DNA of 64,000 bases from Acidobacteriota bacterium (GTDB taxonomy: Bacteria > Acidobacteriota > Holophagae > Holophagales > Holophagaceae). Under the pieces are notes generated by a model. The model saw nothing but the letters and a program-made list of their open reading frames with translations. It was not told where the DNA came from and searched no databases. The stretch spans positions 1 through 64,000 of the forward strand of contig JACPUT010000009.1 of assembly GCA_016192145.1 (NCBI GenBank), read 5' to 3'. The translations under genes and the position numbers were made by a program. How positions within the stretch are numbered: the stretch's first letter is position 1; each line of letters starts with the position of its first letter. Below, piece after piece: positions 101-5,346 of the stretch.

Positions 101-625
101 TTACCGGTGTCCCCTATTTCCACGCCAATTCACGAAGAACCTTTTTTCGCTGGCAGAGCCCGAGCTTTCCGCCCTCTCCAGAATTTCCTCCAGGATGGTC
201 AGCTCGTCGTCGGATAGCCGCGTGAGGTCCATGATTGTGGCTTGGACCTGGACCGGCGAGCCATCCTTCCCCGTGATCTCCTGCCGAGCTGGAGCATCCA
301 GCCCCAAAAGTTTGGATCGACGCTCCATGACCCTCAGCACCCGATCAATGGCGGGGCCTTCGCCATTCATCGCCCGGCCCCAGATCGCGTTATGGAGGTT
401 GTCCAGCCGTTCCAACTCAAGAACGCGGAGATGGTCACTCGCCTCCTGCATGGTCGCCTGAAGCGCGCGTTCCACGGCCCGCTGGGCTCCTGATGGATCC
501 TTATACCCAAGCTGGTGGGCAATCGCCCGATAGGTGTACCCCTCCGCCCTCAATCGCAGCGATTCACCGGCCTTCTCAACGGCAGTGATCCGGCGCTGGT
601 TGGTTTTCCTTCCGCGTGGATTCAT
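101..625 (-). CDS. phage small-terminase-like HTH protein
   Basis: A 174-residue protein. Residues about 20-55 form a helix-turn-helix of the kind found in phage small terminase subunits (RAEGYTYRAIAHQLGYKD), followed by long charged helices (LELERLDNLHNAIWGRA; VLRVMERRSKLLGLDAP). This pattern recurs in HTH proteins just upstream of large terminase genes in many phages; such proteins recognise the packaging site and load the motor. It starts at ATG 625 and lies 45 bp after the Mor-like gene, in the leftward block of the element. The family is recognised from pattern only; a general regulator is the alternative. Confidence 0.55.
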   Translation of the reverse strand: MNPRGRKTNQRRITAVEKAGESLRLRAEGYTYRAIAHQLGYKDPSGAQRAVERALQATMQEASDHLRVLELERLDNLHNAIWGRAMNGEGPAIDRVLRVMERRSKLLGLDAPARQEITGKDGSPVQVQATIMDLTRLSDDELTILEEILERAESSGSASEKRFFVNWRGNRGHR

Positions 626-670: not shown

Positions 671-1207
671 TCATCCCGCCTTTCTCACCGACCGCGCCCG
701 TGCCAGCTCCGCCCTGAGCAGAGAGTAGATTCGAACCGAAGTCAGCCCGTACTTGCGCGCCAGATCCACGATCTCCTCCCCAGACTTGTGATCCTCATAG
801 ATCCTCCTGTTGCGAAGGCGATCCGTCCTGGGGAAGTAGATGCGCGTCCCCGCGTAGTGGCCCCATAGCCGGGCCACCAGGAGCCTCACCCCCTTCTCCA
901 ACGCCTCCCCTTCCAGGCCCGCAGAAGACAGGGCGCTGGCAGTCCAATCCCCCGCCTCTCGAATGAAACGAGGCGTCACCGGATGATCCGACGCGGGCAG
1001 GTCCACTTGGATCCCCTGCCAATTCCATTCGATGGTCCCACCCAGCTTGCAAGCGAGTGCTTCCGCATGGGGAACCTGACCTTCCTCCAACCAGTGGCGG
1101 AGATTCTCCACCAGCTCCAGGGCCTCATCCGAACTCCCCGAGGCTGCCAGATCGATCCTCCCCGCCACAGGCGAGGCAGGGAGCCGGGTGGAATTCACGG
1201 CCATCAT
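671..1207 (-). CDS. Mor-family transcription activator
   Basis: A 178-residue protein. Its last 60 residues match the Mor/C activator family of Mu-like phages: a central segment ending GTRIYFPRTDRLRNRRI, then an HTH with D-L-A-R-K-Y-G-L-T and R-I-Y-S-L-L. Mor activates phage middle or late promoters. The N-terminal ~80 residues are not recognised. I place the start at ATG 1207 because it forms an ATGA overlap with the stop of the DnaC-like gene; the longer frame upstream lies inside that gene. It is probably translationally coupled to the loader gene and sits between replication and packaging genes, as a switch regulator would. Confidence 0.7.
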   Translation of the reverse strand: MMAVNSTRLPASPVAGRIDLAASGSSDEALELVENLRHWLEEGQVPHAEALACKLGGTIEWNWQGIQVDLPASDHPVTPRFIREAGDWTASALSSAGLEGEALEKGVRLLVARLWGHYAGTRIYFPRTDRLRNRRIYEDHKSGEEIVDLARKYGLTSVRIYSLLRAELARARSVRKAG

Positions 1208-1905
1208 AGTCCCCTTTCGATGCGGCGATCGGGCAAGTGGACCGGCATCTCGATGGCTGGCGCCATGCCTATGAGGCGGCTTACGATGCGCGCCTGATAG
1301 CGGTCGGTAAGTTGGATCGGATCCAGGTTTGAAGTCCACAGGGTGGCCCGGTGGGCATCGTGACGGGTGTCCAGGACGGGGGTGAGCACTTCCGTGATGG
1401 CCCAATCCGACCCCGGAGGCACCTTCGGCGCCTGCTCGGAGCCCAGGTCGTCAATGACCAGCAGCGGCGCCCGGCACAACTCTTCCAAGGCATCCTCGAA
1501 GGCCGGGCCACCTTGGCGAACCAGGCCCCGAAGTCGGGCGAGGGTTCGCTGCCACGGCGCCCAAGTGGGAACCCATGGACCCACGAGAGCCCCATTCAAT
1601 TCCAGTGCCCGGAGCCCCGCCCCCATGGTCCAGGCCTTCACGATGGCCACAACCCCGTAGGTCTTTCCGCGGCCCGTGCGGCCGTAGAGTCCCATCCCTC
1701 CCCTTGGTCGGCTGATCGGGCCCTCCATGAGGGCATCCAGGCGCGGACGAATGCGACGGAGTAGCTCCTCATCAAGCTCCCGGAGGTCTGCCTTGAGAAA
1801 TTCCTCAGGAATGCCGATGGCCGCGAGGCGTCGGCGTACCTCTCCAGGTAGTTCCTCCATCCGCGCCTGAGACCGGGCCTGCAACAACTCACACGAGCTA
1901 CCCAC
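1204..1905 (-). CDS. DnaC/IstB-type AAA+ helicase loader
   Basis: A 233-residue ATPase. The Walker A motif is GLYGRTGRGKT, Walker B is LLVIDDLGSEQ, and a sensor region follows (TLWTSNLDP; R-I-V-S-R-L-I-G). These are features of DnaC-family loaders that deliver replicative helicase to a phage origin. The chosen GTG start at 1905 overlaps the stop of the upstream replication gene by 8 bp and has an AGG-rich ribosome site; ATG near 1860 is the alternative. The stop overlaps the Mor-like gene. IstB of an insertion sequence is the other AAA+ option, but no transposase is adjacent and the replication gene upstream favours a loader. Confidence 0.75.
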   Translation of the reverse strand: MGSSCELLQARSQARMEELPGEVRRRLAAIGIPEEFLKADLRELDEELLRRIRPRLDALMEGPISRPRGGMGLYGRTGRGKTYGVVAIVKAWTMGAGLRALELNGALVGPWVPTWAPWQRTLARLRGLVRQGGPAFEDALEELCRAPLLVIDDLGSEQAPKVPPGSDWAITEVLTPVLDTRHDAHRATLWTSNLDPIQLTDRYQARIVSRLIGMAPAIEMPVHLPDRRIERGL

Positions 1906-2896
1906 GCCCCACCTCCGCTCCCTGACGCTCCATTTGGGCGCGCAGTACGGTCTTGAGGTCCTCGTTGGACTCTCCCAATGGTCCCCCCCGCCTCGCGCCC
2001 CCTTGAGCACTTCCGTTCCAGGCGCGAGCCTGTTCCACAAGGCTCAGAACCTTCCCAGGCTTGAGCATGAATTCCAGGTGAGCTCGAAAGGTCCCGCCAT
2101 CTCCTAGGGTCTTCTCCCCGCGGGCCCAACCCAAGGCTGGACTCTGCTCTAGGGCGAGACAAGCCTCTCGGAATAGGTCCGCCCATCCTTCCTCCCTCAA
2201 GCGCGCTCGAAGGGAACCCTTTCGCTTGCCATCCAGCTTTAGGGCCCGGGGCAGACCCACCTTCCGGGCCGCCTCATTCCATCGCTCCAATAACTCGGAT
2301 TCGACCGAGGAAAGAGGGCCCTCGGCCCCATTCCCCGAAGGGGAAGTGGGTGTCTGGTGCTGGTGGTACTCCTTTATAGCGTCCCGCCCCGCACTCACAC
2401 TGCTCTCGGCGTGGTCTCTCTCTGTTCCCGTCTGAGTCTTCTCATCCTGGTTTTTCAAGGAAGCGTGCTCCCGTCGTGGTCCACGGCTGGCCCCGGCGTG
2501 GTCCCGATCCGTTCCCGCCGATTCCGGGACGCGGAGGACCATGTGGAGGATCTCTGATCCAACCCGGTAGGTCTCGAAGGCCCCTCGCTGGCGGGCGGCT
2601 GTTCCCAAAGGTCGGAGCACACCCTGGGCGGCGAGTCCCTGCACCCACCGATGGGCCGCGCTCCGGCTCCAGCCCATGGCATCAGCCAACTGATCGAGCC
2701 CGAATCTTGCCTGCCCCGGCTCCAGGGAACCGTCGGGACCCCACTGGGTTTTCAGGGCGATCCAGAAAAGTCCCGCCGCTCTCGGGGCGGGACGCCCAGG
2801 GCCAAAGCCTCGAAGGGTCTCTTCCAATCGCGTTCGCGGCGCCGCCAGCCAAGGCTCTCGCCGGCCGGTGGCCAGCTCCGATGTCTTCAGCTGCAC
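1898..2896 (-). CDS. phage replication initiator, O-like
   Basis: About 332 residues. The N-terminal part holds a winged-helix region (LDQLADAMGWSRSAAHRWV; GLAAQGVLRPLG). A low-complexity polar linker follows, and the C-terminal domain (E-L-L-E-R-W-N-E-A...; G-T-F-R-A-H-L-E-F-M-L-K-P) resembles phage replisome organisers. Such proteins bind the phage origin and recruit a loader, here encoded by the next, overlapping gene. The start is taken as GTG 2896 with GGAGG five bases upstream; an in-frame ATG at 2974 would add 26 residues of poor quality. The 177 bp between this gene and the AlpA-like gene contain no convincing gene, although one open frame ends at a TGA (2900-2898) touching the ribosome site. 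Confidence 0.65.
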   Translation of the reverse strand: MQLKTSELATGRREPWLAAPRTRLEETLRGFGPGRPAPRAAGLFWIALKTQWGPDGSLEPGQARFGLDQLADAMGWSRSAAHRWVQGLAAQGVLRPLGTAARQRGAFETYRVGSEILHMVLRVPESAGTDRDHAGASRGPRREHASLKNQDEKTQTGTERDHAESSVSAGRDAIKEYHQHQTPTSPSGNGAEGPLSSVESELLERWNEAARKVGLPRALKLDGKRKGSLRARLREEGWADLFREACLALEQSPALGWARGEKTLGDGGTFRAHLEFMLKPGKVLSLVEQARAWNGSAQGGARRGGPLGESNEDLKTVLRAQMERQGAEVGRG

Positions 2897-3073: not shown

Positions 3074-3334
3074 TCAGGCCCCCACGGACAAGCCGGGAAG
3101 GCGGTCGGCTTCGGCGGTGCTTTGAACCTCGCGGGCCTTCAGCCATCCGTTGAGGGACTCCAGGGCGTAGAGCACCTTGCGGGGTGACACCCGGATCCAC
3201 CTGGGTCCGACGCCGCGGCGGCGCCAATCCTCCAAAGTGCGTTTTGCGATTCCGGTTCGTACCGATACCTGGGCCTGGCTCAGGTAGACGGGGCCGGATT
3301 CGGCCGGTCCAACGGGGTTGAGGTGAGGTTTCAT
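3074..3334 (-). CDS. AlpA/excisionase-type DNA-binding protein
   Basis: An 86-residue protein with a MerR-like winged helix: VYLSQAQVSVRTGIAKRTLE, then the wing R-G-V-G-P-R-W-I-R and Y-A-L-E-S-L-N-G-W-L. This is the AlpA/excisionase fold used by phages and integrative elements to bend att DNA or activate early genes. The start is ATG 3334, preceded by GGAGG; a longer reading begins at 3511 but crosses non-coding sequence. It sits first in the leftward block, next to the palindrome-rich control region and 300 bp from the integrase, as an excision or early-control gene would. Confidence 0.7.
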   Translation of the reverse strand: MKPHLNPVGPAESGPVYLSQAQVSVRTGIAKRTLEDWRRRGVGPRWIRVSPRKVLYALESLNGWLKAREVQSTAEADRLPGLSVGA

Positions 3335-3523
3335 GGGCCCTCCGTGTTGGTTGACCCACGCCCGGTGACGTAGACTGAGCGCGGGTTGCGGGCTTACGCC
3401 CGCCCTGTTGCCCAGGTCCGTGCGTGCTGTAGGAGGCGATGCGCGGATCTGGGTTCTTTGTTGCGCCCCTGCGGGGCATGGCAGGAGTATGCGACGGTCC
3501 GATCTAAACACAAACCATTATTA

Positions 3524-3599
3524 GCATTGGTACTTAGTACCAATGCGCCACGCATCAACTCTTGTTCGATTACCGGAGAAACTGATGCGCCACGCATCA
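3524..3599. promoter_or_regulatory. nested palindromes in the prophage control region
   Basis: An AT-richer island between the AlpA-like gene and the integrase. It carries a perfect inverted repeat (GCATTGGTAC at 3524-3533, TTA, GTACCAATGC at 3537-3546). Overlapping it is ATGCG-CCA-CGCAT (3543-3555), and a longer copy TGATGCG-CCA-CGCATCA lies at 3583-3599. The 17-base word ATGCGCCACGCATCAAC occurs twice, at 3543 and 3585, exactly 42 bp apart (about four helical turns). This looks like operator DNA for a dimeric element-encoded regulator. The rest of 3335-3631 shows no gene. Confidence 0.6.
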
Positions 3600-3631
3600 A
3601 CAGGGCCAGGACGGCGCCACGCCCCTCCGGC

Positions 3632-4843
3632 TCAATCGCTCCCAGTCCGCTGCCCCTTCAACTTCTCCGCAAGGGCGGCCCCTACGCGCTCCGAAGCCGC
3701 TTTCACCGGCCCCTCGAACAGGTGGGCGTAGCGTTAGGTCGTGCGCTTGTCCTTGTGGCCCAGCAGCTCCCCGACGAATTCCAAGGACTCCCCCGCGTTC
3801 GCGCCGACGCTGGCGTGCAGGTGCCGCAGCCCGTGAATCCAGATGTGGGCCTTCATCCCCTTGGCCTCGGCGGTCTTCCGCACTCGGGCAATGGCCCGCT
3901 TCAGTGCGGTGATGGCTGACTCCTCCGAGTCGTAGGGGAACACCAGCGGGTTCCCGAGCTGGCGCGGCACCCGCTTCAGTACATCCAGGGCGAGGGCGTT
4001 CAAGGGGATCACCTTCTTCCCGGACTTGCGGGCAGTCTTGTGCTCCGACTTCACGATGACTCCCCGCGCCATGTCCAGCTCATCCCAACGCAACCCCACG
4101 ATTTCCCCGCGTCGGGCCCCCGTGGCGAGGATCAGGCGCAGCATCTGGACTGGCACGGCTCCGCATGCGGGATTGGCCTCCTCCTCATCCAGCGCCAGGC
4201 CCAAGATCTCCAGCTCCTCGTCCGTCAGCTCAAGGGTCCGCGGTTCCTCGTAGAACTTCTTCACCAGCTTGACGGGGTTGGAATTCAGTGGCCGGTAGCC
4301 CGCTTCCTCGGCCCAGTTGAGCAAGCGGCTGATGACCCGCAGGCATTGATTAGCCTTGGAGGGAGTGTCTCGCATCCCGTGATGGAGGCGGCGCAGATCC
4401 TCCACCCCCAGCCCGTGAATCTTGAGCGTCCCCAGCGCGGGGAGAATGGCCTTCTCCAGATCCCAACGGTAGGTGGATAGGGTCTTCGGCTTCAGCTTCG
4501 AGCCTTCCTGTTCCAGAAATTCAGTGGCGGCCTTCTTCACGGTGGGGGCCTCCCTCCAGGCCCGGCGAACGGCGGCGGGATCCTCTCCCGAAGCGATCCC
4601 ACCGCGCTTCTCGATGGCGAGGGCGCGGGCCTGCTCCACCGTGAGGTCTGCCCCGAAGCGCCCCAGCTTTACTTCCACTTGGCGCCCTGCAACCAGGGCC
4701 TTCAGAAAGAACGTCTTGGCCCCGGAGGGGTACACCCACACTCCGAAACCCGGAATGTCCCGGTCGAAGACGCGGTAGCGGCCTTCCTCTGAACGAAGGG
4801 CATCCACTTCGCGCTTGGTGAGTTTGACGTTGCTTCGTCGCAT
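3632..4843 (-). pseudogene. tyrosine integrase with in-frame stop before catalytic Tyr
   Basis: A phage-type tyrosine recombinase: N-terminal DUF4102-like arm-binding domain (residues 1-90), SAM-like core-binding domain (about 100-190), and catalytic domain with Arg244 (TGARRGE), Lys near 269, His337-Arg340 (HGLRH) and His363 (LGHKD). After K-R-T-T the frame meets TAA (3736-3734). Reading through gives R-Y-A-H-L, so the nucleophilic tyrosine is the second residue after the stop, and about 33 more codons run to TGA at 3634-3632. Family members usually have Gln or Leu at the stopped position, and CAA to TAA is one transition. The protein made without readthrough (369 residues) lacks its nucleophile. 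It lies 160 bp from the tRNA-Pro att fragment. Confidence 0.85.
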
Positions 4844-5004: not shown

Positions 5005-5051
5005 TATTTGGGAGCAGAGGGTCGTAGGTTCGAATCCTATCGCCCCGACCA
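5005..5051 (+). other. attachment-site remnant: 3' half of tRNA-Pro(TGG)
   Basis: From 5007 the sequence reads as a tRNA from its anticodon loop onward: loop TTTGGGA with anticodon TGG at 5009-5011, 3' anticodon strand GCAGA, variable GGGTC, T-arm GTAGG-TTCGAAT-CCTAT, acceptor CGCCCCG and ACCA. The 5' side (TTGTA) cannot pair with GCAGA and no 5' half precedes it, so this is not a whole tRNA. A 3' fragment next to an integrase is what integration into a tRNA gene leaves at the distal end. The intact tRNA-Pro should lie at the other end of the element, left of the window. Confidence 0.8.
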
Positions 5052-5083
5052 CAAAAGGGAGGCCATGCGGCCTCCCTTTTGTG
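5050..5083. terminator. 15-bp perfect hairpin after tRNA-Pro fragment
   Basis: CACAAAAGGGAGGCC (5050-5064), loop ATGC, and its exact reverse complement at 5069-5083. The stem ends in an A/T run on both sides, so it can act as a bidirectional intrinsic terminator. It overlaps the CA of the tRNA-Pro ACCA end and was probably the tRNA's own terminator before insertion. Confidence 0.75.
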
Positions 5084-5085
5084 AG

Positions 5086-5115
5086 TCGGTGGGGCGATCG
5101 GATTCGAACCTACGA
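5086..5115 (-). other. inverted partial copy of a tRNA T-arm/acceptor
   Basis: Read on the minus strand, this gives TCGTAGGTTCGAATCC followed by GATCGCCCCACCGA. It resembles the T-arm and acceptor of the tRNA-Pro fragment on the other side of the hairpin, differing at about three positions. One T-stem pair is mismatched and no 5' half is found, so it is not a functional tRNA. It may be a decayed att copy or tRNA gene remnant. The rest of 5116-5346 shows no gene, only another hairpin. Confidence 0.5.
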
Positions 5116-5221
5116 GTGGGATCGCGGAGACAGCGCGGGGGCCTGTCGGGAGCGAGACCGGCGAACGGCGCAGCCGGACGCAGTTCGAATCCTGATCGAG
5201 CATGGCGAACCCGATGCGGGT

Positions 5222-5254
5222 CGTTCGGGACCCTGCGAGGCAGGGTTCCGAACG
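5222..5254. other. strong hairpin without U-tract
   Basis: CGTTCGGGACCCTGC (5222-5236) pairs with GCAGGGTTCCGAACG (5240-5254) with one mismatch and a three-base loop. No T-run follows, so it is not a classical terminator. It lies in the gene-free stretch before tRNA-Arg. Confidence 0.5.
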
Positions 5255-5346
5255 GGGCCCCCGCACGGGTGAGCATAGCGTCGGGCTGGGTCGCCCTCCC
5301 CAAGCCGCGCGACGCAACCCCACGCCATCCCTTATCCTTAAGTCGG

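What the first reader, a model, noticed from the sequence alone, without database searches (positions are those of the whole stretch)
3632..3736. Integrase has a stop codon two residues before its catalytic tyrosine
All other catalytic residues are intact (Arg244, His337, Arg340, His363). TAA replaces the codon between TT and RYAHL, then the frame stays open for about 33 codons with normal sequence up to TGA. A clean single-base change (CAA to TAA) with no other decay suggests a very recent loss that would lock the element in place, or regulated readthrough.
Basis: partly seen in the sequence, partly recalled or inferred. Interest (0 to 1): 0.65.

Follow-up and report, generated by a model that had tools for sequence, protein, structure and literature searches.

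The report
Recently broken integrase in mini phage island
A small phage-derived island in a soil/sediment bacterium (Holophagaceae) carries an integrase cut short by a stop codon just before the amino acid that does the cutting, so the island is probably stuck where it sits; this is an ordinary way for such elements to die, although the 5.9-kb island is unusually compact.

Summary
The minus-strand integrase (4843-3734) ends at TAA (3736-3734), two codons before its Tyr. Arg244, Lys269, His337, Arg340 and His363 are present, and 33 further codons run to TGA. All 79 viral relatives and the 26 cellular relatives readable there have a sense codon; Gln is commonest among the viral ones. No TTA-anticodon tRNA was called, no unusual RNA structure follows the stop, and UAA is the least leaky stop. 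A recent null allele is the best reading.

The element is now bounded on both sides. Contigs C4 (the window) and C14 share one ISL3 insertion with a perfect 8-bp duplication. Without the IS the island is 5.95 kb between 47-bp repeats of tRNA-Pro(TGG), with the empty site seen in relatives. Its co-directional genes are int, AlpA/Xis-like, O-like, DnaC-like, Mor-like, TerS and two unknowns. There is no large terminase, portal, capsid or tail gene, and no second integrase. It looks like a minimal PICI/PICMI-style satellite or a trimmed prophage; the data do not decide. Clean att repeats, arm sites and tail suggest recent loss after integration. The CAA ancestor is plausible but unproven. Low to moderate interest.

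The parts
3734..4843 (-). tyrosine integrase ORF, 369 aa, ends in TAA (3736-3734)
3632..3733 (-). in-frame tail after the stop: Arg, Tyr nucleophile, 31 more residues, TGA
3511..3631 (.). int-xis intergenic control region; two 17-bp direct repeats ATGCGCCACGCATCAAC (3543-3559, 3585-3601) and a palindrome TTGGTACTTAGTACCAA near 3528-3544
   Evidence: for the repeats; the palindrome read from the sequence
3074..3334 (-). AlpA/Xis-like HTH_17 protein, 86 aa
   Evidence: PF12728 E 5.3e-5, below the Pfam cut-off; phrog_66 excisionase/regulator E 1.6e-7
1898..2893 (-). O-like replication initiator, about 331 aa (start codon uncertain)
   Evidence: phrog_345 E 1.9e-4; 42% over 112 aa to a prophage gene in L141
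1204..1968 (-). DnaC-like helicase loader (start codon uncertain)
   Evidence: phrog_50 E 6.1e-25
671..1216 (-). Mor/C-family late transcription activator
   Evidence: PF08765 E 2.2e-12; phrog_532 E 1.3e-14
142..625 (-). small terminase subunit (TerS); last codons displaced by the IS
   Evidence: phrog_645 E 9e-31; 36-39% to gene 1 'terminase small subunit' of Arthrobacter phages; the same family lies directly before a large terminase in another Holophagaceae genome
1..141 (.). end of an ISL3-family IS; 8-bp target duplication TTTTTTCG follows at 142-149 and recurs on contig C14
4877..4898 (-). 22-bp integrase arm-type site GTTGTGGATCTGTTGTGGAGGT, repeated at the other end (L012 near 1141-1162)
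5007..5053 (+). 47-bp att core = 3' part of tRNA-Pro(TGG); identical copy inside the intact tRNA at C14:1187-1233

Best explanation
A small phage-derived integrative element entered tRNA-Pro(TGG) using a working tyrosine integrase that bound the two matching arm sites and cut the 47-bp tRNA core (integration by this enzyme is inferred from the att anatomy). Afterwards a point change made a UAA codon two residues before the Tyr nucleophile. The truncated 369-residue protein may still bind DNA, but it lacks the nucleophile and the C-terminal tail that follows it, so it cannot cut. The element is therefore fixed unless an integrase is supplied in trans. At some point an ISL3 IS also jumped into the end of terS. 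Shown: stop, att and arm sites, empty sites in relatives, IS duplication, gene content, uniqueness of the stop. Inferred: loss of activity, order of events, recency.
For: Stop and otherwise intact catalytic set. Sense codon and Tyr in all 79 viral relatives and a sense codon in the cellular relatives readable there. Tail not eroded. Att cores 47/47 identical and 22-bp arm repeat at both ends. tRNA-Pro next to tRNA-Arg without the element in four other genomes, one of the same genus, where the protein-coding end upstream of tRNA-Pro also matches the C14 flank. No TTA-anticodon tRNA among the calls. No RNA structure after the stop (z 0.30). No other copy of this integrase in the genome; the next best are 31% and 29%.
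Against: No activity test. One assembly only, no reads. No relative closer than 41%, so the pre-mutation codon and the age cannot be measured. Two distant tyrosine recombinases on C10 were not tested for action in trans.
Confidence: 0.8

Rival explanations
1. Sequencing or assembly error, or a minority allele: the cell's integrase is intact and the element is mobile.
For: Single-base event in a draft genome (19 contigs); no reads to inspect.
Against: The site lies inside a long contig in single-copy sequence; contig ends suggest a short-read k=141 assembly, where isolated substitution errors are rare.
Confidence: 0.09
2. Low-level or regulated UAA readthrough makes a little full-length integrase, keeping recombination rare.
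For: Tail remains open and uneroded; the readthrough product would carry Tyr and the whole C-terminus; an integrase interrupted by TGA is reported to be read through in Salmonella (PMC12455584).
Against: UAA rather than UGA; no structured RNA after the stop; no TTA-anticodon tRNA called; stop absent from every relative examined. A young null allele would look the same in the tail.
Confidence: 0.05
3. The element still moves because another tyrosine recombinase or a co-infecting phage supplies Int in trans, and the truncated protein is at most a DNA-binding competitor.
For: Att cores and arm sites are intact; two distant integrase genes sit on C10; the genome has another phage-like region on C6.
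Against: C10 proteins are only 31% and 29% identical; no evidence that they recognise these arm sites; C6 genes seen include no integrase of this type.
Confidence: 0.05

Closest known systems
PICMI, phage-inducible chromosomal minimalist island (PMC10803314)
   Same: About 6 kb; integrase, AlpA-type regulator (PF12728 is one of the models used there), replication gene, few others, no capsid genes.
   Different: Inserted in tRNA-Pro instead of next to fis; O-like plus DnaC-like genes instead of the DUF3987/DUF5906 primase; carries TerS and a Mor-like activator; host is Holophagaceae, not Vibrionaceae; integrase broken; no helper known.
PICI, phage-inducible chromosomal islands of Gram-negative bacteria (PMC6092414)
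   Same: int, AlpA/MerR-type regulator, replication module, terS in some; no structural or lytic genes.
   Different: 5.9 kb rather than about 15 kb; O/DnaC replication; induction, helper and packaging untested; not shown to share PICI-exclusive genes.
Lambda-type prophage remnant, as in Holophagaceae genome G035 (L240)
   Same: int, excisionase-like, O-like (42% over 112 aa) and DnaC-like genes in the same order.
   Different: G035 keeps a tail assembly gene and a head gene, a second integrase and an IS; the present element keeps none of the structural genes and is compact.
Salmonella IntA with an internal TGA (PMC12455584)
   Same: Integrase gene with an in-frame stop and an otherwise open frame.
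   Different: TGA in mid-protein with reported readthrough; here UAA just before the nucleophile, with no sign of readthrough.

Membership tests
active tyrosine integrase | Arg, Lys, His, Arg, His catalytic set | tested here: met
   R244, K269, H337, R340, H363
active tyrosine integrase | Tyr nucleophile in the translated protein | tested here: not met
   TAA two codons earlier; 79 of 79 viral relatives have Tyr in frame
tRNA-targeting integrative element | direct repeats of the tRNA 3' end, empty site in relatives | tested here: met
PICI / PICMI-type phage satellite | int, AlpA-type regulator, replication gene close together, no structural genes | tested here: met
   replication gene is O-like rather than Pri-Rep, and the HTH_17 match is below the Pfam cut-off; whole element read between att sites except the body of the IS
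PICI / PICMI-type phage satellite | mandatory primase (DUF3987 / DUF5906) of PICMI | tested here: not met
   no such Pfam hit among element proteins
PICI / PICMI-type phage satellite | induced, replicated and packaged by a helper phage | not testable with these tools
   needs culture; a possible phage region with large terminase and portal exists on C6, relation unknown
complete prophage | large terminase, portal, capsid and tail genes | tested here: not met
   none between the att sites

The most novel reading that the evidence does not exclude
A minimal (5.9 kb) phage satellite in Holophagaceae, with its own TerS and Mor-type activator, whose integrase is made only by rare UAA readthrough so that excision is throttled.
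Probability: 0.03. Interest if true: 0.6.

Novelty: new member of a known kind. Interest (0 to 1): 0.25.

Why it matters
Loss of the integrase is a common last step in the life of an integrated element, and this is a clean, young-looking example with both ends known. The island itself, if a satellite, would be a very small one from a bacterial family outside the groups covered by the satellite papers read here, combining TerS, a Mor-type activator and lambda-type replication genes in under 6 kb.

Tried and rejected
Close relatives with a sense codon at the same site: none found; single-protein scans of viral contigs and genome contigs and tblastn in phages and plasmids gave nothing above 41%. 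A conserved stop in relatives: rejected. Ochre suppressor tRNA: rejected; the one weak uncalled tRNA match in the array has a degenerate anticodon loop that does not read UAA. RNA structure for recoding: rejected. Second integrase at the far end: rejected. Large prophage spanning several contigs: rejected because each identical IS copy has its own matching 8-bp duplication (C4 with C14, C9 with C17) and because the same-genus genome has the two flanks side by side. Relatives of p75, p195, the Mor-like and the O-like protein in viral contigs: none. Defence genes in the element: only a marginal, uninformative match. An alignment-based scan of genome contigs was not possible.

Full report
OBSERVATION. 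The minus-strand ORF 4843-3734 encodes a tyrosine integrase with arm-binding, core-binding and catalytic domains (phrog_1 integrase E 1.2e-52). It stops at TAA, 3736-3734. The frame continues RYAHLFEGPVKAASERVGAALAEKLKGQRTGSD to TGA at 3634-3632. The tail is real coding sequence by descent: its identity to relatives is close to that of the rest of the protein (32% against 35%), and its GC3 is 0.79 against 0.82.

IS THE STOP SHARED? No. Among 79 related viral integrases with the motif, every one has a sense codon at this place and Tyr two codons later (Gln 36, Ala 14, Ser 12, others). Among cellular relatives, from the same bacterial family, the 26 that could be read there have Gln 4, Lys 4 and others, and no stop. 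The closest relative of any kind is 41% identical, so the codon before the change cannot be named with confidence. CAA is one option; in viral relatives Gln is mostly CAG.

WHERE THE ELEMENT BEGINS AND ENDS. The window is the start of contig C4 of a 19-contig genome. The organism belongs to Holophagaceae, judging by a neighbouring DegP-like protein (up to 62% identical to Geothrix and other Holophagaceae records). Window 5007-5053 is identical to 47 bases of an intact tRNA-Pro(TGG) at the start of contig C14. C4 and C14 both begin in an ISL3-family IS that has three copies in the genome. The bases just outside the IS are TTTTTTCG on C4 and its complement CGAAAAAA on C14, an 8-bp target duplication. 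The other identical copy, between C9 and C17, has its own duplication, AAATTGGC. C14 and C4 are therefore the two sides of one insertion. In the same-genus genome G001 the protein-coding end matching the C14 flank, tRNA-Pro and tRNA-Arg lie side by side without the element. Neighbouring tRNA-Pro(TGG) and tRNA-Arg(TCT) without the element also occur in G025, G027 and G049. Both ends carry the same 22-bp arm site in the same orientation.

CONTENT. Without the IS the element is about 5.95 kb att to att (the join in that script dropped one base, so the TerS tail it printed is off frame; read by hand the IS-free site gives ...SASEKRRQA with a TGA that overlaps the ATG of the next gene). All genes run one way: int, AlpA/Xis-like, O-like, DnaC-like, Mor-like, TerS, a 75-residue protein and a 195-residue protein with one likely membrane segment. 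TerS rests on phrog_645 (E 9e-31), on matches to gene 1 of Arthrobacter phages, and on a Holophagaceae prophage in which the same family directly precedes a large terminase. No large terminase, portal, capsid, tail or lysis gene was recognised between the att sites.

WHAT IT IS. Two readings fit: a minimal satellite in the style of PICI or PICMI (PMC6092414; PMC10803314), or a prophage reduced by deletion. For a satellite: the size, the gene set, TerS without TerL, and the coupled TerS-p75 start. For a remnant: the O and DnaC genes are prophage-like, and a decayed prophage in G035 has int, O-like and DnaC-like genes in the same order together with structural remains. I put them about even. Either way the integrase is broken.

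HOW IT WORKS. Tyrosine integrases cut DNA by attack of the Tyr (established knowledge). Without it, and without the C-terminal tail, the protein can at most bind DNA. The element must have integrated with an active enzyme. Att repeats, arm sites, IS duplication and tail are all undamaged, so the loss is probably young; age could not be measured. Readthrough is possible in principle: a Salmonella integrase with an internal TGA is reported to be read through (PMC12455584). Here nothing favours it: UAA, no RNA structure (z 0.30), no TTA-anticodon tRNA among the genome's tRNA calls. Sequencing error remains open because no reads were available.

VERDICT. Observation confirmed; interpretation of recent loss supported, of readthrough not supported. 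An ordinary fate in a compact and fairly interesting element.

Noticed in passing
L090 6712-14113 (own genome C7:677811-685209): A dense array of 30 tRNA genes on one strand covering many isoacceptors, with a Ro60/TROVE protein gene and an RtcB ligase gene between the tRNAs and a Fic protein downstream. Looks like an RNA-repair type operon carrying a spare tRNA set.
   Followed up: partly
L047 5596-15951 (own genome C6): Another phage-like region: repressor, ParB-methyltransferase, large terminase, portal, head genes, about 5 kb from a third ISL3 copy; a possible helper or a separate remnant.
   Followed up: partly
L047 199-342 and L090 19652-19798: The third ISL3 copy, flanked by C6 and C7, shows no clear 8-bp duplication (AAAAATTC on one side, AAAAAATC on the other), so it may mark a rearrangement or an older insertion.
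   Followed up: no
L002/L003 (own genome C10:188563-190862): Two adjacent, different tyrosine recombinase genes.
   Followed up: no
L101 531-621 (own genome C7:356030): An unusually long (91 nt) tRNA called Pro(TGG), a possible odd or misread tRNA.
   Followed up: no
window 5080-5330: Repeated tRNA-3'-end-like fragments downstream of tRNA-Pro, also seen around tRNA-Arg in the same-genus genome (L275 1080-1220 and 1580-1710), suggesting repeated partial tRNA copies in this region.
   Followed up: no
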